64,000 nucleotides of DNA from Agapetus fuscipes (lineage: Eukaryota > Arthropoda > Insecta > Trichoptera > Glossosomatidae), in contig OX637342.1 in the NCBI GenBank assembly GCA_951799405.1, positions 15,857,298 to 15,921,297 of the forward strand, given 5' to 3'. Of the stretch, positions 1,424 through 63,819 are shown piece by piece (positions within the stretch are counted from its first letter, which is position 1; each line of letters begins with the position of its first letter). A program made the position numbers and the translations under genes. The notes beneath the pieces were generated by a model. That model had not been told where the DNA came from, did not search any database, and saw only the letters and a program-made list of their open reading frames with translations.

Positions 1424-2008
1424 TGGTGACGCATGAATAGCGTCATCTATTTTTATTTTAATTAATAGTCTAAGAAGCGAATTTCATGTTGGACTTTCAC
1501 AATCTGAAAAAAGTGCGGATAAAAATCGCAAGATGTCGGTATGAACTTTTTTGACATCCAACGTGAAATCTCAAGATTTGATGACTTCCTTTTCCGTCGT
1601 TGTTCGCAGTAGACACGTTTTTATATGTCTCGCGACCGATTTGAAATTTACCGTTAAAAAATCTGTGAGTGAGTGTGTTTGTTTTACATATAACTTGCAA
1701 GTGTGGCAGTTCGTGAACAAAGCTCATCTCCATAGGATCCTGAGAAACGAGCATCATCTTGGACCAGAGCACAATTTGAGGTGAGTGGAGATCCTTTTGA
1801 TTTTCGCTTCTTTGGTACGGGATAGTCGTCCAAAATTGAAAGCCACCTATTGAAGGTTGGCTTTTGTTTGAGAGAGAAATACCATAGGCACTAGATCTAG
1901 GTATTTCATATCTCGCATTGGAGAATACGTTACAGTTTCTCTATTTGTCTTTTTTTGTATTTTATATACATACCCCCTGAGGGGCAAAACTTACAACTTG
2001 CCTCTCCA
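1424..2008 (+). repeat. BEL/Pao 5' LTR
   Basis: 585 bp, beginning TGGTGACGCATGAATAG and ending ACTTGCCTCTCCA, repeated almost identically at 8096-8680. It would carry the element promoter; I could not place a convincing TATA box in it. Confidence 0.93.
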
Positions 2009-2009
2009 T

Positions 2010-2026
2010 TGGTCCTTCGTAACCTT
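2010..2026 (+). promoter_or_regulatory. Probable primer binding site
   Basis: TGGTCCTTCGTAACC begins two bases after the 5' LTR. Retrotransposon primer sites begin with TGG, which pairs with the CCA end of a tRNA. I could not identify the tRNA. Confidence 0.55.
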
Positions 2027-2555
2027 ATCGAAACCAGAATGGTTGACATGAAACGGATATTCAAGGATACTGTGTCGATAGTTAATTGTTAAGAACATAA
2101 TGTAATATGCCTTTGTATTAGAATCTATATTCTAGCATTATTTATATTGTGTACAAAAATTAACGAGTGTCATATTATATATTTTTGCTGTATGTAGGTA
2201 GTTATTTTTTAATAAGTGTTGAATACACAGTAGGTACATATATTTGTTAGTTGCGGAATTAAAACACTGATGATACCTATCCATTAGCGATTAGGTATTC
2301 ATACAGCTGAGCGTTGTCTTCAGGTGCCTACCTACCTTTGTTTATATTTTTATATAAATGTCATTACAAGTTTGTTATTGTTTTTTTTTCCATTAGTAAA
2401 TAAACTATCTGGAGAAAGTAAATATTATGATACATACTGACATAAAATAAATTCAACTTTGAGGCAAATCGATTTCTTCTTTCAGAACTGAAAGTAGGTT
2501 TTTTCGATTTTGTTACCGTTTCTTCATTTTTTATTGTTTATTTTAAATAGTAAAC

Positions 2556-5500
2556 ATGGCGGATGCTTTAACAAGAACTTTGGTTATATTGAAAGAGAAA
2601 CAAAAGGTTTATTTTGAAAGAATAAATAATTTATATAAACTAGGAAAAAATGTTTCTAATTTTGCATCCAGAGAGAATAGTAATTTTTTATCGGCTTCCA
2701 AGGAAGCAGGAAGCTGGGTTAAAAAGTACGAAGATTTGATAGATCAAATAAATGCACTTTCTTTAGAGATAGACCCAGAGGCAAAGGTAAATTATCAATC
2801 ACTTATGGCCTTTGAAGAACTTTATAGTAAAATAATGGATGTTAGGGAAAGAATTTTAAAAACCGAAACACCACATGTATCGACTCAAAGTGGGCCTAGA
2901 TATGAGGTAAAATTACCACCCATACAAATTCCTTTGTTTGATGGGAATCCAAAAAATTGGTCACGATTTTTTGAATCCTTTAAGGCAAATGTCCATCTAA
3001 ATACAGGGTTGTCAGACGCCCAAAGAGTGCAATATTTAACAGGCAACTTGACGGGAAAGGCAGCGAGCATATTTTCGGGAATTGTACCGTCAGCGGAAAC
3101 CTATAACGTGGTCTGGGACAGTCTTGTTAAAAAATATCAGGATAAACGTGCGCTAGGAACATATTACATAAATAATATCCTTGATTTAAAGAAGGCCGAT
3201 CACACGGCTGCCTGTCTTGATGGCTTTATTGAGAAGTACGCCGCTTCCATTGCAGCATTAAAACAATTAGGTATTGCAGATGTGGGAGATTTTCTTTTAT
3301 TTAATTGCGCTTTGCGCAAATTGAATTCGTCTACAGTTATGGCCTTCGAGCTTTCGCTGAAAGACATCGAAATACCTTCTTGTCAGAATCTTATCAGTTT
3401 TGTTCAACAACAGGTCAAAATTTTGGAAAGATCGCACGTAAATGAATCGAAGTCGGTTTCCGAAGCTTGCCATTCGAATACACGCGTGAGGAATAATACG
3501 ACAAAATCTGTGAGTGGTCGTGCGTTCCTCGCAAGTGGTAGAGTGTCTACTGGGGACACTCTCTTTTGCGTTTTGTGTAAACGAAACGACCATAATAAAT
3601 TACATAAATGTGTGAAATTTAAGAGCTATTCTCCTAAGGAAAGGTATGAATTTATTAAATCAAAACGGGGTTGCGTTCGTTGTTTGAGTGTTACCCACTG
3701 GTCTCATTGTACTGAGACAGGAACTTGTCAAATTTGTAATAAGGGACATCACACCCTTCTGCATTTTGACGACAATGAGAATAAGGCCAGACGAGTAGTC
3801 AAGAATGCTGAGCAGGGACATCAGCTGTCGCATTCAGGTGATGATATGCAAGGGTCGGGTGTACCCTCGGTTTCTTTAAGTGCAAATGCTCGGGTGAATG
3901 CGAGCACGGTGCTGTTGGCTACGGCACAGGTTTTTGCCTGGTCAAATTACAAGAAAAATAAGATGATAGTTAGATGTCTTGTTGATAATGGTTCTCAAAA
4001 CCATTTGATAACATTAGAATGTTGTAGAAATATGAATTTACATATTGTTCCTTTAAATAATTCAGTAATTAGAGGAATCGGTCTTTCTGCACGACCGATA
4101 CATGGATGTGTCAATTTTGAAATACAATCGAGGTACAATCCTCAAAATACTTACAAGGTTAACGCGTTAGTGGTGGATCAGATCACGGATCAGTTACCTT
4201 CTAGGTACATTGATAACCGTGATATGACTTATTTAAAGGACATTTCAATGGCTGATTTATCCTGGAATGTCCCTGGAGTTGTGGACATTGTGTTGGGTGC
4301 ACAATTGTTCCCTTTCATTTATTTGGGAAAAATGATAGAGTCAAAGTCGAAAGCGCCACCTGCATTATTGACGTCCTTTGGCTATGTATTGATGGGAGAT
4401 TGTCCAAAGAGTGTTTCAGCTGCAGACAGTTGTCACGAATCTTTTTCTGCATTGGCTGTAAAAGATGCGGATTTATTATTACACAAGTTCTGGGAGTTGG
4501 AAGAAATCCCAGTGAAAAAGTTCTTAAGTCCAGATGAGACGGCGTGCGAAAACTCCTTTGTATCTTCTGTGACTAAAGACGAGGTAGGTCGTTACTCTGT
4601 TGCTCTACCCTTTTGTGCTGATCCTGAAAATTTGGGCAACTCACGAAATACTGCATTTCGGCGTTTCTTGTTATTAGAAAGAAAGTTTAAGCAGTTACCG
4701 AGTCTGCAGGAGAATTATAATTCGGTAATAAATGACTATATTCAAAAGGGATATCTCTCTGAAGTGGCAGAGTCAGATATTGGTGAACATGGATATTATA
4801 TTCCTCACCACGCTGTAGTGCGTCAAGACAAACCTATGCCTCGCATTGTTTTAGATGCTAGTGCGAAAACGCATACTGGGTTGTCACTCAATGATGTACT
4901 ACATTCTGGGCCAAATTTACAGGCTGATTTGTTTCTCCTTTTATTAGATTTTAGGCTGTTTCCTGTCGCGATGACAGCAGATGTACAGCAGATGTATTTG
5001 CAGGTTGGTGTATTTGTTGACCACCGCAGATATTTGAGAATATTATTTCGTTTTTCTGAAAAGGAGAAAGTTCGAACCTTTCAATTTAATAGGGTTCCAT
5101 TTGGATTAAAGTGTAGTCCTTTCTTGGCCATGCGATCTGTGCGTCAGTTGGCATCGGACATGGCTGAACATTTTCCGGAAGCCGCCAAAGTAGCTGGAGC
5201 TAGGTTTTATATGGATGACCTGGTTCAGTCTGTGGCAGATGAGGCTTCGGCTGTTTCTCTGGCAAAAGATCTCGTAGCTTTGTTCAAGTATGGTGGCATG
5301 GATCTGGTAAAATGGTCAAGCAATTCATCTTATCTATTAGATAGTCTTCCTAACTCACATAGAGGTTCCATAAAATTTGATGATGATAAAGGCGTAACTC
5401 TAAAAGTATTAGGGTTGTCTTGGGATCCAGTTAAGGATAATTTCTTCTTTACTTCGAATGACTCTCAGCAAAAATGCACGAAGCGATCTATTTTGTCAGT

Positions 5501-7748
5501 TGTAGCTCGTTTGTTCGATGTTTTGGGCTTAGTCGCACCAGTTATACTGGCTGCAAAGCTTCTCATCAAAGAGCTATGGCGTGCCAATATCGGTTGGGAT
5601 GACTCTCCGCCTGATGCTATAATTCGACGTTTTTCGAGTATAACACAAGAACTTCCGTTGCTCGCTACTTTAAAAATTCCTAGGCACATCGGTGTGACTA
5701 GCTCAACCAAAGTATTATTAATAGGTTTTTGTGATGCTAGTCTGAATGGTTACGGTTGTGTCATATATGTACATACAACTGACATGGATGGAAATATTTC
5801 TGTCAGGTTGTTGTGCTCAAAATCTAAGGTATCTCCCACCAAGATTACGACATTAGCACGTTTAGAGTTGTGCGCTGCTGTTTTATTGTCAAAGATGTTA
5901 AAACTTGTGATCGAGATGTATCGTGATCGGATTCATATAACTGATGTATATGCTTTTTCTGATTCAACGATTGCGTTGGCTTGGATTTGCTCTTCTCCAC
6001 ATCGTTGGTCAATTTTTGTAGGAAATAGAGTCGCTCAGTGTCAGGAGAATTTACCCCTACAGAACTTTTATCACATCTCAGGGGATGAGAACCCAAGTGA
6101 CTGTGTTTCACGTGGTATGTTACCATCTCAATTAATTTCTCATAGTTTATGGTGGAATGGTCCACTGTGGCTTCAACGCCCTTCGGATGAATGGCCGATT
6201 CAAAGATTCTCCTCGTCCGATGCGTTAGAAATTCCTGAACAGGCAACTGTACTGACAGCCATTGTAGTACATGTCGACTCTATGATTTTATATGACTTAG
6301 CACAACGAACTTCTTCGTGGAATAAATTAATTCGAATTACAGTTTACATCTTTCGCTTTATAAATAAATTTAAATCACTGTTGCATTTTATTGAATGCAT
6401 GTCCCATGCTGAAGTTAAGTTAATACAGACAATACAAACTGTTCATTTCTCGGACGACATTAAGTTGATAAAAGATAACAAGTTACCATCGAAAAAACTG
6501 CGTAATTTATCGGTTTTTCTGGATCAGGAAGGTACGTTACGAGTTGGAGGTCGGCTTTCACGGTCTGATTTACCCTTTGAAGCTAGACACCCAGCTTTAC
6601 TTCCGAAACATGACTCAGTGGTGAACTTAATAATTAAACATTTTCACGAATCCAACTGTCATACCGGTCCAGGACTTTTGATGTCTATCATACGACAAAG
6701 GTTTTGGATATTGGATGCCAGAACCGTTATACGAGCACAAACTCGTAAATGCAATATTTGCTTCCGAGTGAACCCGTCGCACCCTACGCCAAAGATGGCG
6801 GACTTGCCTGCCTGTCGCATAACAGAAGCTAAAGCATTTGTGCATACGGGGGTAGATTATGCTGGACCTTTAAAAATACTTCTTACGCGACGACGCGGAC
6901 AACATGCTCAAAAGGCATATATCTGCCTGTTTGTTTGTCTCGTGACCAAGGCGGTGCATATTGAGCTCGCAACTGATCTGTCAAGTGCCTGTTTTATAGC
7001 TGCATTTAAGCGTTTTATCTCTCGTCGTGGGCCAGTTTCCTTTATGTATTCGGACAACGGCACAAATTTTGTTGGGGCTCGTGCCCAATTAGATGAGATA
7101 TATAATCTTTTACAAAATTCACAGCATAATGTCCGAATGAAACGAGAACTTGAGGCGTATAAAATAGAGTGGAAAATGATTCCCCCTCGAGCTCCTCACT
7201 TCGGAGCTTTATGGGAATCAAATATTAAGAGTTTGAAAACTCATCTGTATCGAGTGATAGGGAATCAGTTGCTCACATATGAGGAGATGCAAACGGTGTT
7301 GACTCAAATCGAGAGTATCATGAATTCTAGACCACTAAGTGTCATCAGTTCTGATCCTCACCCTGACGTTATAACTCCTGCGCATTTCTTGATGTCCACT
7401 CCCTTAAAACATCTGCCTGCTTCTGAGCTACCTGACACACCAGTTAATCTCACTCAGCGTAAAAATCTCCTGGATCAAATAGTGTCATCTTACTGGAAGC
7501 GATGGAGGGTAGAATACCTGCACACTTTGCAGGTCAGACAAAAATGGCAAACCGATGTTAATGCAATTCAGGTAGGGACTGTTGTACTGATTGGGCAAGA
7601 GGACGCTCCTCCTTTGTCCTGGCCTCTGGGAATCATCACCAAAGTTTTCCCTGGGGATGATGGCGTGATTCGAGTAGCCACAGTAAAGACTGAGCAAGGT
7701 TTTTACAAACGTCCGGTCGTCAAACTCTACCCATTGCCGACACAATAG
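2556..7748 (+). CDS. BEL/Pao Gag-Pol polyprotein
   Basis: 1730 aa in one frame, starting at the ATG in AAACATGGCGG. Gag part: the conserved LFDGNPKNWSRFFESF region (about 125-280, DUF1759-like), then Cys/His clusters (about 338-400, including CQICNKGHH). Aspartic protease: LVDNGSQ near 475. Reverse transcriptase: LNDVLHSGPNLQ near 780, MTADVQQMYLQV near 806 and the catalytic YMDD at about 885-888. RNase H: FCDASLNGYG near 1057 and FSDSTIALAW near 1132. Integrase: an HxxxC zinc region near 1361-1401 with CNIC, then catalytic Asp near 1434 (GVDYAGP) and near 1500 (YSDNGTNF), and the Glu around 1550 (HFGALWES). The C-terminus (from about 1620) is DUF5641-like, typical of this group. Domain order protease-RT-RNaseH-integrase fits BEL/Pao. 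The protein would assemble particles, copy the RNA and integrate the cDNA. Confidence 0.95.
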   Translation: MADALTRTLVILKEKQKVYFERINNLYKLGKNVSNFASRENSNFLSASKEAGSWVKKYEDLIDQINALSLEIDPEAKVNYQSLMAFEELYSKIMDVRERILKTETPHVSTQSGPRYEVKLPPIQIPLFDGNPKNWSRFFESFKANVHLNTGLSDAQRVQYLTGNLTGKAASIFSGIVPSAETYNVVWDSLVKKYQDKRALGTYYINNILDLKKADHTAACLDGFIEKYAASIAALKQLGIADVGDFLLFNCALRKLNSSTVMAFELSLKDIEIPSCQNLISFVQQQVKILERSHVNESKSVSEACHSNTRVRNNTTKSVSGRAFLASGRVSTGDTLFCVLCKRNDHNKLHKCVKFKSYSPKERYEFIKSKRGCVRCLSVTHWSHCTETGTCQICNKGHHTLLHFDDNENKARRVVKNAEQGHQLSHSGDDMQGSGVPSVSLSANARVNASTVLLATAQVFAWSNYKKNKMIVRCLVDNGSQNHLITLECCRNMNLHIVPLNNSVIRGIGLSARPIHGCVNFEIQSRYNPQNTYKVNALVVDQITDQLPSRYIDNRDMTYLKDISMADLSWNVPGVVDIVLGAQLFPFIYLGKMIESKSKAPPALLTSFGYVLMGDCPKSVSAADSCHESFSALAVKDADLLLHKFWELEEIPVKKFLSPDETACENSFVSSVTKDEVGRYSVALPFCADPENLGNSRNTAFRRFLLLERKFKQLPSLQENYNSVINDYIQKGYLSEVAESDIGEHGYYIPHHAVVRQDKPMPRIVLDASAKTHTGLSLNDVLHSGPNLQADLFLLLLDFRLFPVAMTADVQQMYLQVGVFVDHRRYLRILFRFSEKEKVRTFQFNRVPFGLKCSPFLAMRSVRQLASDMAEHFPEAAKVAGARFYMDDLVQSVADEASAVSLAKDLVALFKYGGMDLVKWSSNSSYLLDSLPNSHRGSIKFDDDKGVTLKVLGLSWDPVKDNFFFTSNDSQQKCTKRSILSVVARLFDVLGLVAPVILAAKLLIKELWRANIGWDDSPPDAIIRRFSSITQELPLLATLKIPRHIGVTSSTKVLLIGFCDASLNGYGCVIYVHTTDMDGNISVRLLCSKSKVSPTKITTLARLELCAAVLLSKMLKLVIEMYRDRIHITDVYAFSDSTIALAWICSSPHRWSIFVGNRVAQCQENLPLQNFYHISGDENPSDCVSRGMLPSQLISHSLWWNGPLWLQRPSDEWPIQRFSSSDALEIPEQATVLTAIVVHVDSMILYDLAQRTSSWNKLIRITVYIFRFINKFKSLLHFIECMSHAEVKLIQTIQTVHFSDDIKLIKDNKLPSKKLRNLSVFLDQEGTLRVGGRLSRSDLPFEARHPALLPKHDSVVNLIIKHFHESNCHTGPGLLMSIIRQRFWILDARTVIRAQTRKCNICFRVNPSHPTPKMADLPACRITEAKAFVHTGVDYAGPLKILLTRRRGQHAQKAYICLFVCLVTKAVHIELATDLSSACFIAAFKRFISRRGPVSFMYSDNGTNFVGARAQLDEIYNLLQNSQHNVRMKRELEAYKIEWKMIPPRAPHFGALWESNIKSLKTHLYRVIGNQLLTYEEMQTVLTQIESIMNSRPLSVISSDPHPDVITPAHFLMSTPLKHLPASELPDTPVNLTQRKNLLDQIVSSYWKRWRVEYLHTLQVRQKWQTDVNAIQVGTVVLIGQEDAPPLSWPLGIITKVFPGDDGVIRVATVKTEQGFYKRPVVKLYPLPTQ

Positions 7749-8080
7749 ATTACTATTTAATTTCGTCTACTGAGTTAGTAGATCTCTACCATTGTACATA
7801 TTTACCATGTTTAGAATTAATCTTATGCTTTACTACTAAGCTTATCTGTTAGAACATGTTAAATCTAGCTTATTATATTGGCTTAAGTATTTTTGTGTCT
7901 AACCTGCTTACTTGTAGGCATACTTATTGTATTAATTATATTAAGTTTCTCTAGTTTAAGATTTTCAAACATTGATTGTAATTATACCTATATATCATTT
8001 CTCGAATATTGTTTGTAAAAATCGACATGGTTTCTTTGAATATCTGGTTTGTGTTGCAAAGCTTTTAACTTTAAGTCTTT

Positions 8081-8095
8081 GCAAAGGGGGGTGTA
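8081..8095 (+). promoter_or_regulatory. Polypurine tract of the BEL/Pao element
   Basis: GCAAAGGGGGG followed by TGTA directly precedes the 3' LTR. This is the usual place and composition for the primer of plus-strand DNA synthesis. Confidence 0.75.
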
Positions 8096-8680
8096 TGGTG
8101 ACGCATGAATAGCGTCATCTATTTTTATTTTAATTAATAGTCTAAGAAGCGAATTTCATGTTGGACTTTCACAATCTGAAAAAAGTGCGGATAAAAATCG
8201 CAAGATGTCGGTATGAACTTTTTTGACATCCAACGTGAAATCTCAAGATTTGATGACTTCCTTTTCCGTCGTTGTTCGCAGTAGACACGTTTTTATATGT
8301 CTCGCGACCGATTTGAAATTTACCGTTAAAAATTCTGTGAGTGAGTGTGTTTGTTTTACATATAACTTGCAAGTGTGGCAGTTCGTGAACAAAGCTCATC
8401 TCCATAGGATCCTGAGAAACGAGCATCATCTTGGACCAGAGCACAATTTGAGGTGAGTGGAGATCCTTTTGATTTTCGCTTCTTTGGTACGGGATAGTCG
8501 TCCAAAATTGAAAGCCACCTATTGAAGGTTGGCTTTTGTTTGAGAGAGAAATACCATAGGCACTAGATCTAGGTATTTCATATCTCGCATTGGAGAATAC
8601 GTTACAGTTTCTCTATTTGTCTTTTTTTGTATTTTATATACATACCCCCTGAGGGGCAAAACTTACAACTTGCCCCTCCA
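8096..8680 (+). repeat. BEL/Pao 3' LTR
   Basis: 585 bp, same length as the 5' LTR and nearly identical to it; ends ACTTGCCCCTCCA and is followed by GTATG. Confidence 0.93.
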
Positions 8681-21075: not shown

Positions 21076-21079
21076 GTAT
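21076..21079. repeat. Target site duplication, left (GTAT)
   Basis: GTAT directly before the 5' LTR; the same four bases follow the 3' LTR at 24139-24142. Confidence 0.85.
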
Positions 21080-21533
21080 TGTAACGAAATACACTGGTAG
21101 ATTTTTATTGGTGTACGTGTGTTTTGAGAGAATGTTCTGGCCCAGACGATTGTAATTGTAAGGTGTGAATGTAGGTAGGAAATGGACTCTTCATGAAATA
21201 AATATGTCCAGAATCGTCTATACAACTGTGGTAGTGGAACTTTCTAGGGCAGGCTAGAATGGCCCCTAGGTTCCGCTATAAGAAGGGCGACATTCGGCTG
21301 AAGGGAGTCAGTCTTTCGAAGCACTCACACAGTGGAATATCTAGTTACTAGGGCGACCAATATGGTGTAAAATAAATGTAATCTGTACGAAATAAATAAG
21401 TGTGTTAAAATAAATCTGTTAGAATAAGTCTGTTAAAAATAAATCTATTGTAAGAAAGTCTGTGTAATAAACTGTATGGCTAACTTGTGTTAAACTTGTG
21501 TTTTAATTAAAAGAACCCAGGAAAAACGTAACA
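21080..21533 (+). repeat. 5' LTR of the DEK-carrying element
   Basis: 454 bp, TGTAACGAAATACACTGG to AAAAACGTAACA. It differs from the 3' copy by T/G near 21096 and A/T near 21170. Confidence 0.93.
21277..21312 (+). promoter_or_regulatory. Core promoter in the 5' LTR
   Basis: TATAAGA at 21277-21283 and the arthropod initiator TCAGT at 21308-21312. The A of the initiator is 33 bases from the start of the TATA box, the expected spacing for RNA polymerase II. Transcription from here would place the LTR end and leader upstream of the DEK-like ORF. Confidence 0.65.
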
Positions 21534-21534
21534 G

Positions 21535-21551
21535 TGGTGTCTGGTGTGAAG
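21535..21551 (+). promoter_or_regulatory. Probable primer binding site
   Basis: TGGTGTCTGGTGTGAAG starts one base after the LTR end. The TGG start and position fit a tRNA primer site; the tRNA was not identified. Confidence 0.65.
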
Positions 21552-21974
21552 TTTAAAACCAAGTACCAAGTAAAAACTGTGCTTGAGAGTATTGAAAAAT
21601 ATATCTGGACAACATAATAAAAAAAAAACTTTTTAAATAAAACTGGTTAAACTTGAATTAAAAACGATCGTGTGGTTACCCGCTAAAAATTTGATTGAAG
21701 TGTACATAAATAACGTGTTAATAATATTGTGTTAGTATTAGTAAATACTCATTAGCCGATCTGACGAAGCAAAGTAAATAATCATTATCTAATATCATTA
21801 TTTGGTGATTTAAAAATAAATATTAAAAGGCGGTACCTACCTACCGTCAGTATAATTAGATAAATTATTATTTTGCTAAAGTACGTATTTAAAATAACTT
21901 TATATATGAAACTCAAAACCCGTATTAAATAAATTTGCAAATATTTTTGTTTTGAAGTTTGTTAAAATAAAAAA

Positions 21975-23684
21975 ATGGCTAAGGTGAACATCAAGGACCT
22001 CAAAGTCTATGAGCTTAAGAATGAGCTTCTGGAGAGGGACCTGGAGACCTCAGGAGGGAAGGCGGCCTTACAGGCACGCCTCATGGAGGCCTTGGAACAG
22101 TCAGGCGAAGACCCGGCATATTTTGTCATGGCGTCTGGAGGGGACCGCGAGCGAGCCGTGGAAGAGTTTAAAACAAAGATGGCTGCCAACTTCAAGAGCT
22201 TGAGGGAAGACCTAGCTGGTTGGAAGGAGGAGAGGGCTAAAAACCTAGCCTTAAGAATGTCGGTGGACACTGATAGTGTAAAATTAAGTGATAATCAGGA
22301 TGACAAAAAGGCCGATATGTCAACTGAGGATGAGTCGTCTCAGAAGTTGGGGAAGGGAGACCTGAAGGCCAAAAACAACGGCCAGCTCAAGGTTGAGGAC
22401 GCAGCTGACAGCAAAGATGACAAAGATGATGTCAAGTCGGCTGAAAACGGCAAGAGTGACTCGGCCGAGGTGAAGGCTGACAAGGATGCGAAGGAGGAGA
22501 CGGACGCCAAGGAGGAGGATGAGGACGCCAAGGACAAGAAGAAGGCCAAGAAGGCCAACAGTGTGAAGAAGAAGCCCGCGCCCAAGAAGAAGGCGGAGGA
22601 GGCCGTGGAGGAGGCTCCCAAGAAGAAGAAGGCCGTGGAGCCGCCGGTGCCCGTGCCCGCGGGCCGGGGCATCCCCATCGACCACATCCCCGACGTGGAG
22701 GTGGCCATCTCCAGGTTCAAGATGGAGGACCTCAAGTTCCGGTACAATCAATTGTGCCGCACGAACCTCATCAAGCGCAACAAAAAGAAGTTCAAGGGCT
22801 ACGAGTTTGAGAAGGACACGCCTGAGCACAAGGCCAAGCTGGAGGAGGTGCAGAAGCTGGAGCCCAAGCAGCTGCGGACGCTGTGCGAGAAGCTGGGCTT
22901 GGACAAGAGGGGCGCGCCCACGGAGCTGGCCAGCAGGGTGGTGGGCTTCCTGCTGCTGCCAAAGCAGGCCTCCTCGCACGCCAGGGGGCTGATGAAGGAG
23001 AGGCCGGTGACTGACCGCGGCGAGGCCACGGGAGGCAGGCCCAGAAGGTCCGCTGCTGCTATTGTCAAGAGAGGTTACTCTAACGAGGAGTATGAAACAG
23101 ATCCGGAAACCAAAGTGCGGGGACCCAAAGTCAGCAGGGATGATTTAGGGGATTCAGATGGCTCGTACAACCCGAGTGGCTCCGGACAGGAGGCGGACTC
23201 TGACTTTGACCCGTCAGTGAGGGAGGGGAGCGCTCCCTCCCGCAGGCGCCGCGCCCCCGCCCGCAGGGGCTCAGCCAAGCAGAGCAAGCAGAAGGGACGA
23301 CCCAAGCATGGCGCGGCAGGAAGCCACTCAGCGAGTCAGAGGACGAGAGCAAGAGTGAGAACTCCGCTTCCGAGCAGGAGAGCGGCTCCGACAACCAAGG
23401 ATTCTGATCCTTTGACGCAGGAGCCGGCGAGCAAGCGGAGCCGAGGAGCGGTGGCTGACCGGGGACGCAAGGCGGCGCCCCCAACCAAGGAAAGGCGCCC
23501 ATGCCGGCCGCCAAGAGGAAAGCACCCCCCCCCACACCAGCCAGCATTGACGGGCAAAACCCTAAGGGGAAAATTCCGTGGAACGTCATTTTTCCTGACC
23601 ACTGGATGCAACTGTGGGTCAAACTGCCCGTACCTTCTTAAAGAAAAGACTGTTCCGGGGCGGAACAGTCTAAGGGGGGGATAA
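21975..23684 (+). CDS. SAP-domain/DEK-like fusion ORF inside the LTR element
   Basis: 569 aa without introns, ATG in an AAAAAAATGGC context. Residues about 3-40 (KDLKVYELKNELLERDLETS...ALQARL) form a SAP fold, which binds DNA and is also found at the start of some insect LTR-element Gag proteins. Residue 95 is a Met that looks like the original start of the host protein: from here the sequence is acidic and lysine-rich (about 95-215), then becomes a DEK-type double SAP module (about 240-335: DLKFRYNQL, KFKGYEFEKDT, LRTLCEKLGLDKRGAPTELA). DEK proteins bind chromatin in the nucleus. The usual DEK C-terminal domain is not seen. From about residue 450 the frame seems wrong: a Ser/Glu-rich tract lies in another frame. 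The stop overlaps the element end, just before the 3' LTR. Family call is strong for the SAP/DEK part; the Gag origin of residues 1-94 is inference. Confidence 0.8.
   Translation: MAKVNIKDLKVYELKNELLERDLETSGGKAALQARLMEALEQSGEDPAYFVMASGGDRERAVEEFKTKMAANFKSLREDLAGWKEERAKNLALRMSVDTDSVKLSDNQDDKKADMSTEDESSQKLGKGDLKAKNNGQLKVEDAADSKDDKDDVKSAENGKSDSAEVKADKDAKEETDAKEEDEDAKDKKKAKKANSVKKKPAPKKKAEEAVEEAPKKKKAVEPPVPVPAGRGIPIDHIPDVEVAISRFKMEDLKFRYNQLCRTNLIKRNKKKFKGYEFEKDTPEHKAKLEEVQKLEPKQLRTLCEKLGLDKRGAPTELASRVVGFLLLPKQASSHARGLMKERPVTDRGEATGGRPRRSAAAIVKRGYSNEEYETDPETKVRGPKVSRDDLGDSDGSYNPSGSGQEADSDFDPSVREGSAPSRRRRAPARRGSAKQSKQKGRPKHGAAGSHSASQRTRARVRTPLPSRRAAPTTKDSDPLTQEPASKRSRGAVADRGRKAAPPTKERRPCRPPRGKHPPPHQPALTGKTLRGKFRGTSFFLTTGCNCGSNCPYLLKEKTVPGRNSLRGG
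23648..23670 (+). other. Perfect hairpin before the polypurine tract
   Basis: GACTGTTCCG, loop GGG, CGGAACAGTC: a 10-bp perfect stem ending directly at the purine tract. It could fold in the RNA or in cDNA. It lies inside the ORF tail and would look accidental as coding sequence. Confidence 0.8.
23671..23684 (+). promoter_or_regulatory. Polypurine tract
   Basis: TAAGGGGGGGATAA sits directly before the 3' LTR TGTAACG, as expected for the plus-strand primer of an LTR element. Confidence 0.8.
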
Positions 23685-24138
23685 TGTAACGAAATACACT
23701 GGTAGATGTTTATTGGTGTACGTGTGTTTTGAGAGAATGTTCTGGCCCAGACGATTGTAATTGTAAGGTGTGTATGTAGGTAGGAAATGGACTCTTCATG
23801 AAATAAATATGTCCAGAATCGTCTATACAACTGTGGTAGTGGAACTTTCTAGGGCAGGCTAGAATGGCCCCTAGGTTCCGCTATAAGAAGGGCGACATTC
23901 GGCTGAAGGGAGTCAGTCTTTCGAAGCACTCACACAGTGGAATATCTAGTTACTAGGGCGACCAATATGGTGTAAAATAAATGTAATCTGTACGAAATAA
24001 ATAAGTGTGTTAAAATAAATCTGTTAGAATAAGTCTGTTAAAAATAAATCTATTGTAAGAAAGTCTGTGTAATAAACTGTATGGCTAACTTGTGTTAAAC
24101 TTGTGTTTTAATTAAAAGAACCCAGGAAAAACGTAACA
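23685..24138 (+). repeat. 3' LTR of the DEK-carrying element
   Basis: 454 bp, same length and boundaries as the 5' LTR; contains the same TATAAGA (23882) and TCAGT (23913). Followed by GTAT. Confidence 0.93.
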
Positions 24139-24142
24139 GTAT
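24139..24142. repeat. Target site duplication, right (GTAT)
   Basis: Matches 21076-21079. Confidence 0.85.
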
Positions 24143-24327: not shown

Positions 24328-24712
24328 AGATAGAATGGCACAGTGACAAAACGGCACGTGACAGAATGACACATGACAGAACAGCACATGAAAAAACAAC
24401 ACAGAAAATATGTACCTATGACAAAACAACACAAGGACAAAATATCACATGACAAAACATAACATATCGAAAACGGCGCATGAAAAAACATCACATGATA
24501 GAACGACTTTCTTGTGATGTTTTGTCATAGTGATTTTTTGTCATGTGTTGTCCTGTCATGTGTCGTTCGGTCATGTGTCGTCCTTTCTTGTGTCGTCCTT
24601 TCCTGTGTCGTTATGTCAAGCGTCGTTCTGTCATGTCTCGTTTGTCATGTGTCGTTATGTCCCTGTGTCGTTCTGTCATGTATCGTTTTGTCACTGTGTC
24701 GTTCCATCATGT
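24328..24712. mobile_element. Foldback-type locus F2 built of 15-bp units
   Basis: Left arm 24328-24504 in units like CACAGTGACAAAACGG and ACATGACAGAACAGC. The right arm 24505-24712 holds complementary units (TGTGTCGTTCTGTCA). The outer ends pair (ATAGAATGGCACAGTGACAA against TTGTCACTGTGTCGTTCCAT). Unlike F1 there is almost no central spacer, so the whole locus could form one long stem. Confidence 0.7.
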
Positions 24713-45338: not shown

Positions 45339-48300
45339 GTATCCATTCTCTCTCGTCAACAAAATTATAAAAACCTAACCTATAAATATAGCCGCTTTAT
45401 GATTTTCCTTCGTATTTCATCATCATCATCACTGAAACGGCAACCCGGGATGGATCTTGGCTTCCATGATCAACTGCAGGCAACGCTGCTTGTCCAACGC
45501 CTTACTTCTCCAGTCTTACCCCACAGCAGTTACTGTCACTGTATCCTGCCGCCGTTCCACTAGGGGTGGCCGGTACCTCCGTAGATGCGTCTCCACTTTT
45601 TTCTGCCCTTGTATACCTCTTTCATCTCTTTAACATTCATCACTTTCTTGATACATACTATTCTCTTATTCTCACTGCAGGTTCCATTCTTTCGCAATCT
45701 CACCTATTTGGCTATCCATCGCTTCCTCGATCTTCCCCTTCCACGCTTTCCTCTGACATTTCCTCTGGACACTTTCTTCGTTAGTCGTTCATCATCCATT
45801 CTTTCAAGATGTCCGAACCATCTCATTGTGCTTTTTTGTACCTATAACATTCTTAAATTCTCTTTTATACCACACTCGTTCATTACCCAATCATTGTGGA
45901 CTCTATCATTCAGTGTCTTTCCAGCCATTGCTCTCAGATAAGCTATTTCTACTGTACATACTTTACTCAACTCACAACTGTCCACACCCCACTTCCAAAC
46001 ATCAATGTCGGTACCAATATGCCGTTGTGTACCGCCAATCTCATATTATTTGTGAGCTTCCTATTTTTTGCAATCGTTCCCATCACACTTCTTCCTCTGG
46101 ACTTCTAAAGATTCTGTTATATTGTTTTCAGGGCTAAGATCCAGCAAAGTTGGAGAGCAATGTGAGGCCATTGTCCGCTTCCCTCGTTTATTCGAGAAGT
46201 TCCCCTTCCCCATCATCATAAACTGCTCCTTCTTGAAGTTGGCAGACGTGTTTCTGCTCGGGAACAACTTCCTGCGACTATGGGTGCTCAGGGTGTGTCA
46301 GCAAAGTGAAAAGCATCTGGACAAGATCATCAACTTGGATGAGGTAAATATCTTCTAATTCTTTCCTTCTTCATAATATAATATAGGATGATTTATTTGG
46401 TGAGCGCTCTGTTTTTGTGTGAATCACACCTTAAGAGACCTCTGCGAGCTTGGTCGTCTCTATAGAAAGCGCCAATTCTCAAGCAAGACACAGTTGCTGT
46501 AAGGCTGGAAGTACCTTTGATGACCGGTCTTTCACTTATACGTGTCTGCTTGTGAAAATGCATATAATTTGAGTCCTTAATGTTGCATATCTGTACAACT
46601 TAGATTAAATTAGATAAATCAGAATTTTTATCATTTGAATATGATTTACTTTCAGATGGTGCGTCGAATATTCAGCATAATTCACTCTAACGACCCCGTG
46701 GCGCGAGCTTTGGCCTTGAAAACCCTCGGCGCCCTGGCAGGGATCATCCCGGAGAAGCAAAACGTCCACCATGCCATCCGCAGGGGGCTGGACAGCCATG
46801 ACAGTGTGGAAGTGCAAGCTGCCATCTATGCTGCTTCACAATTCGCAGCACAATCCAAGTGAGAATCATTCTAATGATTAATGCAATCTATAAACAAAGT
46901 TTTTAATGATTAAGATGAAAGATTACAAAGTTAACGCCTCTACATTCAATGAAGGGAAAAGCAGCAAGTGTCTATTTCGAGTCACAGCATCTAAAATTAA
47001 ACAAATTAAAACTTTCTTTATAGCCTTCAGCTAAAGCAAGAAAGTAAAAATACATGATGATTGCTGATCTTGGTTAGAAGTTGCACTGAAATAAAAAGAC
47101 AATGAAATGAATTCCTCTTCACAAATCTATTTAAAAAACAAATATAAATATATCAACTAAAAATATAAGCAAAAAACGAGTTTTCCATTTCAGAGTGTTT
47201 GCCGTGTCAATGTGCAACAAGATATCAGAGATGATCCGCGGGCAGGCCACCCCGGCTGGCATGAAGCTGCAGCTGCTGCCCGCATTGCGGCACATGCACC
47301 ACGACGCGGCGGCCGCGGGGCCCGTGCGCAGCCTGCTCACAGGACTGCTGCCCAGGCTGCCCGCTGCACCCTTCCTTAGGCTGATGATGCACACTCTCAC
47401 CTCGCTCGCGGCGGCCACGCTCATTGATATACCCGATCAGGTAAAACTAAAACTAAACAGGATTAAAGAGTGGCAATCATATCTGATGAAGTCAAGAAAA
47501 CAGTTAAAATCACAGATATGGCAGACTTCACAGCTAAACAGTCGAGGTAAACCGACCTTCATATTGAAATTGTCGACAGGGAGTAGGAGGGTTGAAGCGC
47601 ACTTAATTACAGACTACAACTACACTTTCAGTTTAAATTTTTGCTGTTTTGTTTTTAATACAGTACTGTTTTAATTTTTACCCCTTTGAATACTTAGGTT
47701 GGTATCAGGCTGACCACCCATGCTGTAAAAAATGGTTCACTTTTCCAGTGGCACCCCTGTTTCAGAGAAGTTCGGCAAAAGTTTCAGGGCTTATGTTCAG
47801 TTGAGGCTTGTTTTTTAATTTGTTAGTACACATGCAGCATTTATTAGCGCAAACTTACACATGTCTGTTTTTGGGCATACATTTAATTGATATTTAAATG
47901 TTCATACATCTTTGCAATTTAGATTATAGATTATTATTATACTCATCGTCCCCCAATCGCGCATAATTATTTCTCCCCTGAGAACCCAAATCGCAATCAT
48001 CCCCAGGTTTGAAACTACTTGGTTAATATATCGTTGGATGATATGATATTTTTTATGGGTTTGTCTTCTTCAAAGCCATGTGGATTACTGTATATCAATG
48101 TAATCATAATATATTTTAATTTTTTACAAATTATCAACGCCTATTCTTCCAGGTTGAGCTATTACTGTCTCACTTGGGGGCTGCTCGTGCCTCTGCCAGG
48201 ACGGCAGCCGTTTTAGGTCTCAGGAAGCTGGCCAGCGGGGGCCGGGCAAGCCTGTGGCCTCCTGGGGCTGCTGGGGACCTCGCCACCAAAGCCCTGGCCC

Positions 48301-61263: not shown

Positions 61264-61676
61264 GAGTAAGAATTATTGATCACAAAATTTATTTCATGAT
61301 TCAAAAATGTATTTACACATCTTCAAACATTGCATCACCGCTAAAAAAGCAAGCTGATCCAAGAGACAATTTCTCATTGTGTAAAAATAGTCTTTATTTA
61401 CATTATACTATCATTCCCTCACCTTACAGTTAGTCACTGTAATTGATATCAGGACATACCTACTTCTTTACTTTTGTTGTTTAGATAACAGGCCTTTTGA
61501 TAATCTTATCACTTCAGCAAACATATAATATTTCAGGAGTTAATTCACTAAATACAAATTTAATGTCTCAAAATTTTATTTTGAAATCTAAACAATGATA
61601 CCTTCTAATTTTCCACTTTTAAACATAACCTATTAAAATTGAATTAGTGAAACAAGTAGTCATTATTTTCTCTAAA
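61264..61676. other. IntS7 3' UTR and spacer before the LRR gene
   Basis: 413 bp between the IntS7 stop and the next start codon on the same strand. No canonical AATAAA is visible; the short gap must hold both the IntS7 3' end and the next promoter. Confidence 0.5.
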
Positions 61677-62839
61677 ATGGAAAACTTTTTTTTTGTGTTA
61701 CTTATTGTGTCATTATCAGCTGTGTGTGTGTGTGAAACAAACAATAAAAAACTATCATCAATCTGTTCGGAAGAAAAATCATACGCTTGTCGATGCATAG
61801 CATTCACAAGTGAGGTTACTGACTTGTACGCAATTGACGTTATTTGTACATACAGAAACATAACCACGCTAACTTCAAAACATTATGTACCAGAATACAC
61901 AGAAATCCTTGATTTTTCCAATAATAAAATATCAACAATAAAAGCGGATAATAATTTAAACGCTCCAACGATGATTAAATTATCATTGAAAAGAAACAAC
62001 TTGAGGAAAATTGAAGATAACGCTTTCGTCGGACTGCCGAAGCTTAAACAATTAGATTTGAGTGAAAATTCCTTAAGTGATCTCTCTCCAGGAGTGTTTC
62101 ACGGCATTTTTAAATTACAAGTCTTGAGCTTAGCTTCGAACCGATTAAAATCATTTGAACAGTACACATTCCATCCACTCCCACAGCTTGAAATATTAAT
62201 TTTAAACGACAACGATCTGGGAGAATTCTTTTCCGGCATTGCCGACATCTTTGCAAGCAGTGGGCTGTCTCTGAATCCAAAAATAACAGCTCTGCACATG
62301 GACAACCTTAACATAACGAATTTACCGTCAACATTTTTCTATCCAGCTTACAACTTGAGACACATAAGCCTGGCTGGCAACCACATCAACTATATCCCAT
62401 TATTTCCATTCACAATCGAATACTTGGAATTATCATCAAACGACATCTTCTCCATAACAGCCACCGACACAAATTTCTTCCCAGGACTCAAAACATTGAT
62501 CCTCAACAACTTACAAAGCTTGAAAGCCATAAACGCTTACACCTTTCAACCGTTACGAGGTTTGAATCGTTTGGAATTGGAAAACTGTAAGAATCTGCGT
62601 AGCTTCAGTGTCGCCGCTTTCGGAAATAATTTAGTCAACGGTGAACTGGAAGTGGAAGACTTTCCTGTCACAAGCATAAGCTTTCGTGGCTCTGGTTTGC
62701 GGACCTTGGATGAGAGATGGCTTCCTCTTTTCTCTCGTCTCCATTCTCTGGACTTGCGTGGGAACCCTTGGGAATGTGACTGTCGCATTGCGTGGTTCTT
62801 AAAACTTCAATTGGATGAAAAGCACAAGGAGTTTATCAG
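61677..62839 (+). CDS. LRR membrane protein exon 1
   Basis: 1163 nt, ending at TTTATCAG|GTTTGACC after two bases of a Ser codon. Read-through would stop at 62877-62879. Confidence 0.85.
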
Positions 62840-63819
62840 GTTTGACCATGTACACTTTTCAACTTATTTAGTAACTTAAAATATTATCATTTTGTTGATT
62901 TTAGACACATTAACTTTGTAATCTTTCATCTCAATATGTAGATTCAACCGACAACCTGCTGATTACGAGTCCGTAGTGTAAGCTTCTAGACCACAGACAG
63001 GTCATGTGGCATGTTAGAATTCTGAAGATATGAGTGTTTACTTGAAATGCAACCACCAATCATAAGCTTTTAATACACATATGAGTAAAGTGTTGTGAAA
63101 TTGACAAAATTATTTTTCCTTTCTGAAATGTGTCTACCGATGACGATGATTATCATTTTGGCATAAGTGGGTGATGAGCCTGTCTATTTACACATAAGGG
63201 GTCACTCTTATACTAAGACTATACGGTGCTATTCTTACACATTTTAGTCCGTTGAGCCCACGCTTTGACAAACTAATGATGCCTGGGCTGGAAGGTTCAT
63301 CACCATGGTAATTCTTACCTACCGAATTTTGGTAATATTTGTATGAAGGTTAATCAGCTGTTCACTTGCGGCATCATGGATTGACAGGTCTTCATACAAA
63401 TGTATCATTAGTTTGTCAAAGCGTGGGCTCAACGGACGACTAAAATGTCTAAGAATAGCACTGTTTGAGTTTAAGAAACAGATTTGCTAAAGCTTGGTAA
63501 TTTTATGGAAGGGCCGTCTGAAACACAACTTTATTAATCAATGCAATCAACAAAAATATTCATCCAAAATTCAATCTCTTTTCACAGCTGCTGGAGCAAT
63601 TCTGAATCCCGCAGTCGCCAGCTGTGGTCTCTGAAGCCTCGCGAGCTAGCGTGTCCCACATGGCGCGGAACTGTCTTCTCCATGACCCGGGCGGCCATCA
63701 TTGTTCTGTGCCTCGTCCTCGCAGGCCTCGTCATCTGGCTGGTGGTCATATGGAAGCCAGAGGTCTACGCAAGGTACTCCACGCTGCAGATAAACCCTAA
63801 CCGCGCTGAAGCTTATTAA
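61677..63819 (+). CDS. Leucine-rich repeat single-pass membrane protein
   Basis: Two coding exons (61677-62839 and 63588-63819) give 464 aa. Start at the ATG of AAAATGGAAAAC: it opens directly into a signal peptide (MENFFFVLLIVSLSAVCVCE), while an upstream in-frame GTG is not a plausible start. Cysteines near 29-52 may form an N-terminal cap. About ten leucine-rich repeats follow (LDFSNNKIS, LKQLDLSENSLSDLSPGVF, LQVLSLASNRLKSF, LRHISLAGNHI), then a C-terminal cap (NPWECDCRIAWFL plus CW and CP from exon 2, giving the usual four cysteines). One membrane segment (about 423-443, AIIVLCLVLAGLVIWLVVIW) and a 21-aa cytoplasmic tail ending NRAEAY complete it. The repeat face would lie outside the cell and bind a partner that I cannot name. 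The splice (CAG|GTTTGA, TTCACAG|CTG) restores the cap cysteines, which supports the model. The specific family member is not identified. Confidence 0.85.
62941..63002 (-). repeat. SINE-B head fragment
   Basis: ATTCAACCGACAACCTGCTG and GATTACGAGTCCGTAGTG, then CTAGACCACAGACAGGTC: complement of a degraded tRNA-like head. Confidence 0.6.
63227..63460. mobile_element. Inverted repeat M2 with M1 material inside
   Basis: Outer arms TGCTATTCTTACACATTTTAG and CTAAAATGTCTAAGAATAGCA (about 57 bp each). The inside (GGTAATTCTTACCTACCGAA, AATCAGCTGTTCACTTGCGG) matches element M1 at 11090-11257. Confidence 0.75.
63588..63819 (+). CDS. LRR membrane protein exon 2
   Basis: Acceptor TTTTCACAG|CTG; codes the last two cap cysteines, the membrane segment and the tail; TAA at 63817-63819. 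It is clearly richer in G+C than exon 1. Confidence 0.85.

What the first reader, a model, noticed from the sequence alone, without database searches (positions are those of the whole stretch)
21080..24138. LTR retroelement that has captured a DEK-like chromatin gene
Seen directly: 454-bp near-identical LTRs, GTAT on both sides, primer-site and purine-tract positions correct, and one intronless ORF joining a SAP domain to a DEK-type SAP module, with no pol gene. Known: LTR elements and retroviruses can package and integrate host mRNA. Inference: residues 1-94 are the start of a Gag from an autonomous partner, and the host mRNA was joined at or just before its own ATG (22257). A capture this recent, with host coding sequence fully inside LTRs and a clean target duplication, is unusual in insects.
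Basis: partly seen in the sequence, partly recalled or inferred. Interest (0 to 1): 0.87.

Follow-up and report, generated by a model that had tools for sequence, protein, structure and literature searches.

The report
Jumping gene carrying captured DEK gene
A small retrovirus-like jumping gene in an insect genome once swallowed part of a chromatin gene called DEK, fused it to its own shell-protein gene, and has since copied itself to many places, apparently with machinery borrowed from related elements.

Summary
The anatomy reported is real: 454-bp LTRs (2 mismatches), GTAT on both sides, primer site, purine tract, and one 569-aa ORF joining a Gag-type SAP N-terminus to a DEK-like part. A recent capture at this locus is wrong: 43 other insertions carry the same fusion. 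Of the 44, 41 have both LTRs; 35 of these pairs show no base mismatch and 37 a matching target duplication. This is a young burst of a non-autonomous LTR family whose capture came before the burst. The joint is DEK's start codon; DEK_C is missing and a stretch is out of frame. The DEK module is 56-59% identical to the four longest lepidopteran DEKs, which are 84-93% identical to one another. An element with a 1880-aa frame and Ty3-type RT shares the SAP segment at 94.7%, up to a break near 22150, so the 5' module was exchanged with a pol-bearing relative. Young copies show no amino-acid constraint on the DEK part. The host's own DEK gene was not seen: that search did not complete.

The parts
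21076..21079 (.). target-site duplication GTAT, left copy
21080..21533 (+). 5' LTR, 454 bp, TGTAAC...GTAACA
   Evidence: 2 mismatches to the 3' LTR; 38 other near-identical LTRs among the 40 scored
21535..21551 (+). primer-binding site TGGTGTCTGG... 1 nt after the LTR; of 21 copies read, 12 have TGGTGTCGG, 6 TGGTGTCCGG, 2 TGGTGTCAGG, 1 TGGTGTCTGG (a leucine tRNA is my recalled guess)
21534..21974 (+). untranslated leader; 91 to 470 nt in 18 of 20 copies measured, longer in L034 and L035 through inserts
21790..22150 (+). recombinant segment (leader 3' part plus SAP): like the pol-bearing relative L077, unlike the DEK-bearing copy L076
21975..22256 (+). Gag N-terminus: SAP domain (residues 6-41) and most of a long predicted helix (56-99)
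22257..22257 (+). fusion joint: first base of DEK's ATG (MSVDTD...; lepidopteran DEKs P0001, P0002 and P0004 have MSGDTDKAKISDNQD)
   Evidence: same joint in L076
22257..23535 (+). DEK-derived part, 3'-truncated (DEK_C missing); about 23310-23425 is read out of frame relative to DEK
23540..23684 (+). non-DEK 3' tail ending in the purine tract (23672-23684); ORF stop inside it
23685..24138 (+). 3' LTR, 454 bp
24139..24142 (.). target-site duplication GTAT, right copy

Best explanation
This is one young copy of a multi-copy, non-autonomous LTR retrotransposon family of Ty3/gypsy descent. In its founder the Gag capsid part and pol had been replaced by a 3'-truncated DEK coding sequence, joined in frame at DEK's ATG to the Gag N-terminus (SAP plus coiled coil). 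Shown: structure, fusion in 44 insertions, shared joint, near-identical LTR pairs, target duplications, and a mosaic junction with an RT-encoding relative. Inferred: LTR-driven RNA is copied and integrated in trans by proteins of autonomous SAP-Gag elements; the capture came from template switching onto co-packaged DEK mRNA; the fusion protein is at present mostly a passenger.
For: 44 distinct insertions carry the fusion; 41 have both LTRs, 35 of these pairs without a base mismatch (L035 and L065 with small gaps), 37 with matching 4-bp duplications (ATAT 19, GTAT 8, ATAC 7, CTAT 2, GTAC 1). In the window copy and 15 mapped copies the interior consists of leader, Gag-N, DEK and tail, apart from inserts in L034 and L035. 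SAP-Gag elements without the DEK-type frame length are abundant: 116 scored of 1737 candidates, one stop in 146 matches, three frames of 1880-1896 aa. One of these has, in the same frame, Ty3-type RT (PDB 4ol8 E 1.8e-26, RVT_1 E 3.1e-10) and shares the SAP segment at 94.7%, the match ending near 22150. L076 has the same DEK joint: Gag-N dS 1.34, dN/dS 0.16, against DEK part (95-440) dS 0.022, dN/dS 0.93. Polymorphism in 41 copies, codons 1-515: 37 synonymous changes against 42.4 expected without constraint.
Against: No element with exactly these LTRs plus pol was found; only 40 of 1088 LTR candidates were scored, and the RT-bearing relative has a different LTR body. Only 1.15 kb and 0.6 kb of that relative were read, and about 47 bases beyond the break, so the break rests on a short stretch there plus the L076 comparison. 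The host DEK gene was not recovered, so source and loss of introns are inferred. Stops are somewhat rarer than expected (1 against 4.5, P 0.054); Gag codons 1-94 lean to synonymous changes (9 against 6.0, P 0.12); DEK codons 95-222 give dN/dS 0.32 on 12 changes; and indels before alignment column 1563 are multiples of three except two in L031. These hint at some coding constraint.
Confidence: 0.87

Rival explanations
1. The Gag-DEK fusion protein works for the element: the SAP-coiled-coil part joins partner Gag particles and the DEK SAP module tethers complexes to chromatin or protects the DNA, which explains the family's spread.
For: ORF of 566 aa or more in 35 of 44 copies; 62 of 67 scored DEK-like matches without a stop; in-frame indels; three confident helices at 283-327, where DEK's SAP lies (block pLDDT 78-93).
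Against: No synonymous excess among young copies (37 against 42.4 expected; in DEK codons 95-440, 22 against 29.8 with more amino-acid changes than expected); DEK part dN/dS 0.93 between L076 and the window; a stretch of DEK is out of frame in the window copy, and L076 reads it the same way; the C-terminal end varies among copies.
Confidence: 0.15
2. A recent capture at this locus.
For: The two LTRs differ by 2 of 454.
Against: The same fusion is in 43 other distinct insertions and in L076 with a different SAP segment.
Confidence: 0.01
3. The capture happened in another insect and the element came into this genome by horizontal transfer, which would explain why its DEK is unlike the lepidopteran DEKs.
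For: DEK module 56-59% to the four longest lepidopteran DEKs, 33% to the DEK of Hetaerina; the copies read are very young.
Against: One search lists DEK-like frames of other lengths (384-666 aa) that may be older residents, but of these only L076 was read, and its DEK part is close to the window's.
Confidence: 0.15
4. A domesticated host gene family rather than a mobile element.
For: The ORF is open in most copies examined.
Against: LTR pairs and different target duplications at unlinked sites; a solo LTR with GTAT on both sides (L009).
Confidence: 0.01

Closest known systems
Bs1 LTR element of maize (passages of review PMC13317346)
   Same: LTR element carrying fragments of host genes; the reference list names a paper on its hybrid ORF formed by cellular gene transductions (title seen only)
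   Different: Bs1 took pieces of three plant genes; here an insect family with one chromatin gene, many young copies, and a Gag 5' module exchanged with an RT-bearing lineage. That Bs1 is low-copy and lacks pol function is recalled, not looked up
Crocodilian ERVs with captured KIT-ligand and nectin3 mRNA (passages of PMC4299795)
   Same: animal LTR elements carrying captured host mRNA in several insertions
   Different: vertebrate ERVs; one capture without loss of an ERV domain, the other at the expense of env (six insertions named); purifying selection reported for the KIT-ligand ORFs, whereas the DEK part here shows none in young copies
Orchid Gypsy elements with an AlkB-type demethylase (abstract of PMC9289625)
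   Same: Ty3/gypsy lineage that fixed a host-like domain
   Different: 25-kb elements with an additional ORF and shown enzyme activity; here a 3-kb element without pol
TRIMs in animals, such as PbTRIM of the harvester ant (abstract start in search listings, PMC3532108)
   Same: small non-autonomous LTR elements
   Different: a long host-derived ORF is present here; that TRIMs are non-coding is recalled

Membership tests
LTR retrotransposon | two direct LTRs with short target duplication | tested here: met
   37 of 41 LTR pairs with matching duplication
LTR retrotransposon | PBS after the 5' LTR and PPT before the 3' LTR | tested here: met
   the tRNA was not identified by a tool
Ty3/gypsy | Ty3-type RT in the element | tested here: inconclusive
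   the element has no RT; a relative sharing its Gag segment at 94.7% has Ty3-type RT, but a different LTR
Ty3/gypsy | Gag shared with Ty3-RT-bearing elements | tested here: met
   (N-terminal part only; the capsid part is missing here)
Non-autonomous LTR element | no protease, RT, RNase H or integrase | tested here: met
   the single long ORF of the window copy reaches Pfam's cut-off only for SAP; for 15 further copies
DEK protein family | SAP / pseudo-SAP module | tested here: met
   PDB 2jx3 E 3.1e-11
DEK protein family | C-terminal DEK_C domain (PF08766) | tested here: not met
   homology ends near 23535
Captured host mRNA (processed) | introns of the host gene absent in the element | not tested
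   host DEK search did not complete (35 tries, first, last)

The most novel reading that the evidence does not exclude
The captured DEK module is an adaptation of a parasite of a parasite: a Gag-DEK protein enters the particles of autonomous SAP-Gag elements and, through its chromatin-binding module, favours reverse transcription or integration of its own RNA, while the family swaps its SAP/leader module to match whichever autonomous lineage is active.
Probability: 0.13. Interest if true: 0.87.

Novelty: new variant of a known kind. Interest (0 to 1): 0.64.

Why it matters
Host-gene capture by LTR elements is known from plants and vertebrate retroviruses. My nine literature searches (listings, with four papers opened in part) listed no insect LTR family built around a captured chromatin gene; the library is open-access only. 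This family offers dozens of near-identical insertions, a copy with the same joint but another SAP segment, and a mosaic junction with an RT-bearing relative, so the order of events (fusion, 5' module exchange, burst) can be worked out, and whether a captured chromatin protein helps an element spread becomes testable.

Tried and rejected
Recent capture at this locus: rejected, since the fusion is in 43 other insertions. Domesticated gene: rejected on LTRs and target duplications. Strong purifying selection on the fusion ORF: not supported in young copies. Viral contigs (11 pattern matches, no relative by tblastn) and phage records (no match): nothing. A structure model of the whole ORF is mostly low confidence (mean pLDDT 51.7), useful only for parts; no fold search was run. 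In counting polymorphism I left out L031 and L044 (broken or with a large deletion) and L067 (start pattern not found), and counted L053 once with L042 and L046 as the window copy; L031, L044 and L067 are included in the tallies. differ slightly (0 and 1 stop; 39 and 37 synonymous) because one counts by codon and the other by base. An earlier count gave 61 of 67 matches without stops; the list gives 62.

Full report
What is there. The element spans 21080-24138. LTRs of 454 bp differ at two places; GTAT flanks both sides; a TGG primer site lies one base after the 5' LTR; a purine tract ends at the 3' LTR. One ORF (21975-23684, 569 aa) has a SAP domain at residues 6-41 (E 1.1e-8). Residues 172-345 match solved DEK chains (best E 1.6e-12) and 228-333 match the DEK module 2jx3 (E 3.1e-11). 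The protein database gives six hits to the whole ORF: four lepidopteran DEKs, one similar unnamed fragment and the DEK of Hetaerina (an odonate, recalled); a search of residues 222-425 adds a partial Manduca DEK; a search of residues 1-100 gives one SAP-type protein, P0007. None of these eight is a Gag-DEK fusion. The searches were capped and favour close relatives.

Where the DEK part begins and ends. Lepidopteran DEK reads MSGDTDKAKISDNQD; the ORF reads MSVDTDSVKLSDNQD from codon 95, base 22257. Homology ends near 23535; DEK_C is missing. Between about 23310 and 23425 the DEK-like reading lies in another frame, so the ORF there encodes non-DEK residues. In the module (element residues 218-334) the element is 56-59% identical to the four longest lepidopteran DEKs (58% to fragment P0005, 50% to the partial Manduca protein), while those four are 84-93% identical to one another; comparisons of these with the two partial proteins, and of the two with each other, run from 74 to 90%. 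The Hetaerina DEK is 33% to the element. Either the capture is old, or the part has changed fast, or the donor was another insect; the host's own DEK is needed to decide.

It is a family. The LTR search scored 40 of 1088 candidates in the 618-Mb genome: the window pair, 15 further pairs and 8 single LTRs. All 15 pairs carry leader, Gag-N, DEK and tail pieces (L031 and L044 lack parts of DEK, leaders vary, L034 and L035 have inserts). Of the 8 singles, 6 were read: four have DEK sequence beside them (two of these, L006 and L010, belong to copies counted again below as L056 and L050), two have none within 1.5 kb, and one of these (L009) is a solo LTR with GTAT on both sides. The ORF search scored 40 of 1362 candidates; 39 of 41 matches cover the whole query. 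A DEK protein search scored 67 of 1312 candidates, 62 without a stop in the match; only L076 of its further places was read. By my hand count the rows name somewhat over 100 distinct places, those being unproved as LTR elements. Counting the window, 44 distinct insertions were examined: 41 have both LTRs, 35 of these pairs without a base mismatch (two with small gaps), 7 mismatches in all; 37 have matching 4-bp duplications, four do not (L037, L049, L058, L063); the ORF is 566 aa or longer in 35, 554-556 aa in 4, 539 aa in 2, and broken, shortened or not found in 3. These copies were picked by similarity to the window copy, so they are a young sample and do not estimate total copy number.

Selection. 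In 41 copies, 136 changes in codons 1-515 gave 37 synonymous, 98 amino-acid and 1 stop change, against 42.4, 89.1 and 4.5 expected when the same changes are placed at random (P 0.054 for stops). By part: Gag codons 1-94, 9 synonymous against 6.0 (P 0.12); DEK codons 95-440, 22 against 29.8, with 64 amino-acid changes against 53.4; codons 441-515, 6 against 8.0. A count by codons gave 39 and 101 with no stop. Indels before alignment column 1563 are multiples of three apart from two in L031, while the tail has frame-changing ones. So the ORF mostly stays open, but amino-acid constraint is not seen in the DEK part of young copies.

Recombination with a pol-bearing lineage. L076 has the same DEK joint but a longer and different Gag part. 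Its Gag-N differs from the window's with dS 1.34 and dN/dS 0.16; its DEK part with dS 0.022 and dN/dS 0.93 over codons 95-440 (0.32 over 95-222, no synonymous and 4 amino-acid changes over 223-362, 1.41 over 363-515). Nucleotide identity is 92-93% in the leader from 21680 to 21799, 55-76% from 21800 to 22159 with many gaps, then 92-100%. L077, the 5' end of an element with a 1880-aa frame, is the mirror image: 85% or better in 8 of 9 forty-base steps from 21781 to 22140 (29 of 40 in the ninth), 40 of 40 at 22101-22140, then falling off; the fetched piece ends some 47 bases later. By BLAST it is 94.7% over Gag nt 5-175 and 88.7% over leader nt 269-425. All 44 insertions have the L077-type SAP segment at 94-96%. 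A 601-bp piece of the L077 element, in the same frame, encodes Ty3-type RT (RVT_1 E 3.1e-10; PDB 4ol8 E 1.8e-26). Its LTR is not that of the DEK family. The rest of that element was not read; no DEK was seen in what was. The simplest reading is template switching between co-packaged RNAs of the DEK family and an autonomous SAP-Gag lineage, at about 21790 and 22150; exchange between DNA copies is not excluded.

Mechanism. LTR transcription, packaging by a partner Gag, reverse transcription and integration in trans are inferred from structure and from the mosaic junction. Founding: read-through or template switching joined Gag codons to DEK mRNA at its ATG and rejoined element sequence near 23535; that is inferred. 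The model shows a long helix at 56-99 and three confident helices at 283-327, where DEK's SAP lies; the N-terminal SAP helices have low to middling confidence and the rest is low, so a chromatin-binding role is possible but unproven.

Literature. Nine searches of open papers listed no such insect family. I saw the abstracts and section lists of PMC5408684 and PMC9289625, and passages of PMC13317346 and PMC4299795. Most subscription papers are not held, so absence from these listings is weak evidence of novelty.

Noticed in passing
window 1497-8612: Bel/Pao element with one open 1733-aa frame (Peptidase_A17, RT, integrase zinc domain); near-identical 147-aa frames at 1497-1940 and 8169-8612 suggest its two LTRs.
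   Followed up: partly
window 47135-47674: Frame matching Integrator complex subunit 7 (INTS7_N, E 2.4e-30): a host gene exon.
   Followed up: no
window 61629-62879: Leucine-rich-repeat protein, 416-aa open frame.
   Followed up: no
window 24339-24698: 15-bp-period repeats on both arms of an imperfect palindrome just 3' of the element.
   Followed up: no
L034 947-2692: A copy whose leader holds about 1.75 kb of insert with a 418-aa frame that looks like a non-LTR reverse transcriptase (label recalled).
   Followed up: no
G000:C33:22144204, C20:16485103, C25:12487173: SAP-Gag frames of 1880-1896 aa without stops, among 116 scored SAP-Gag places of 1737 candidates; only two pieces of the first were read.
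   Followed up: partly
family-wide leader, L031-L075: Leader length varies widely (91 to 470 nt in 18 of 20 copies, longer in two with inserts) and the primer site differs between copies (TGGTGTCGG, TGGTGTCCGG, TGGTGTCAGG, TGGTGTCTGG).
   Followed up: no
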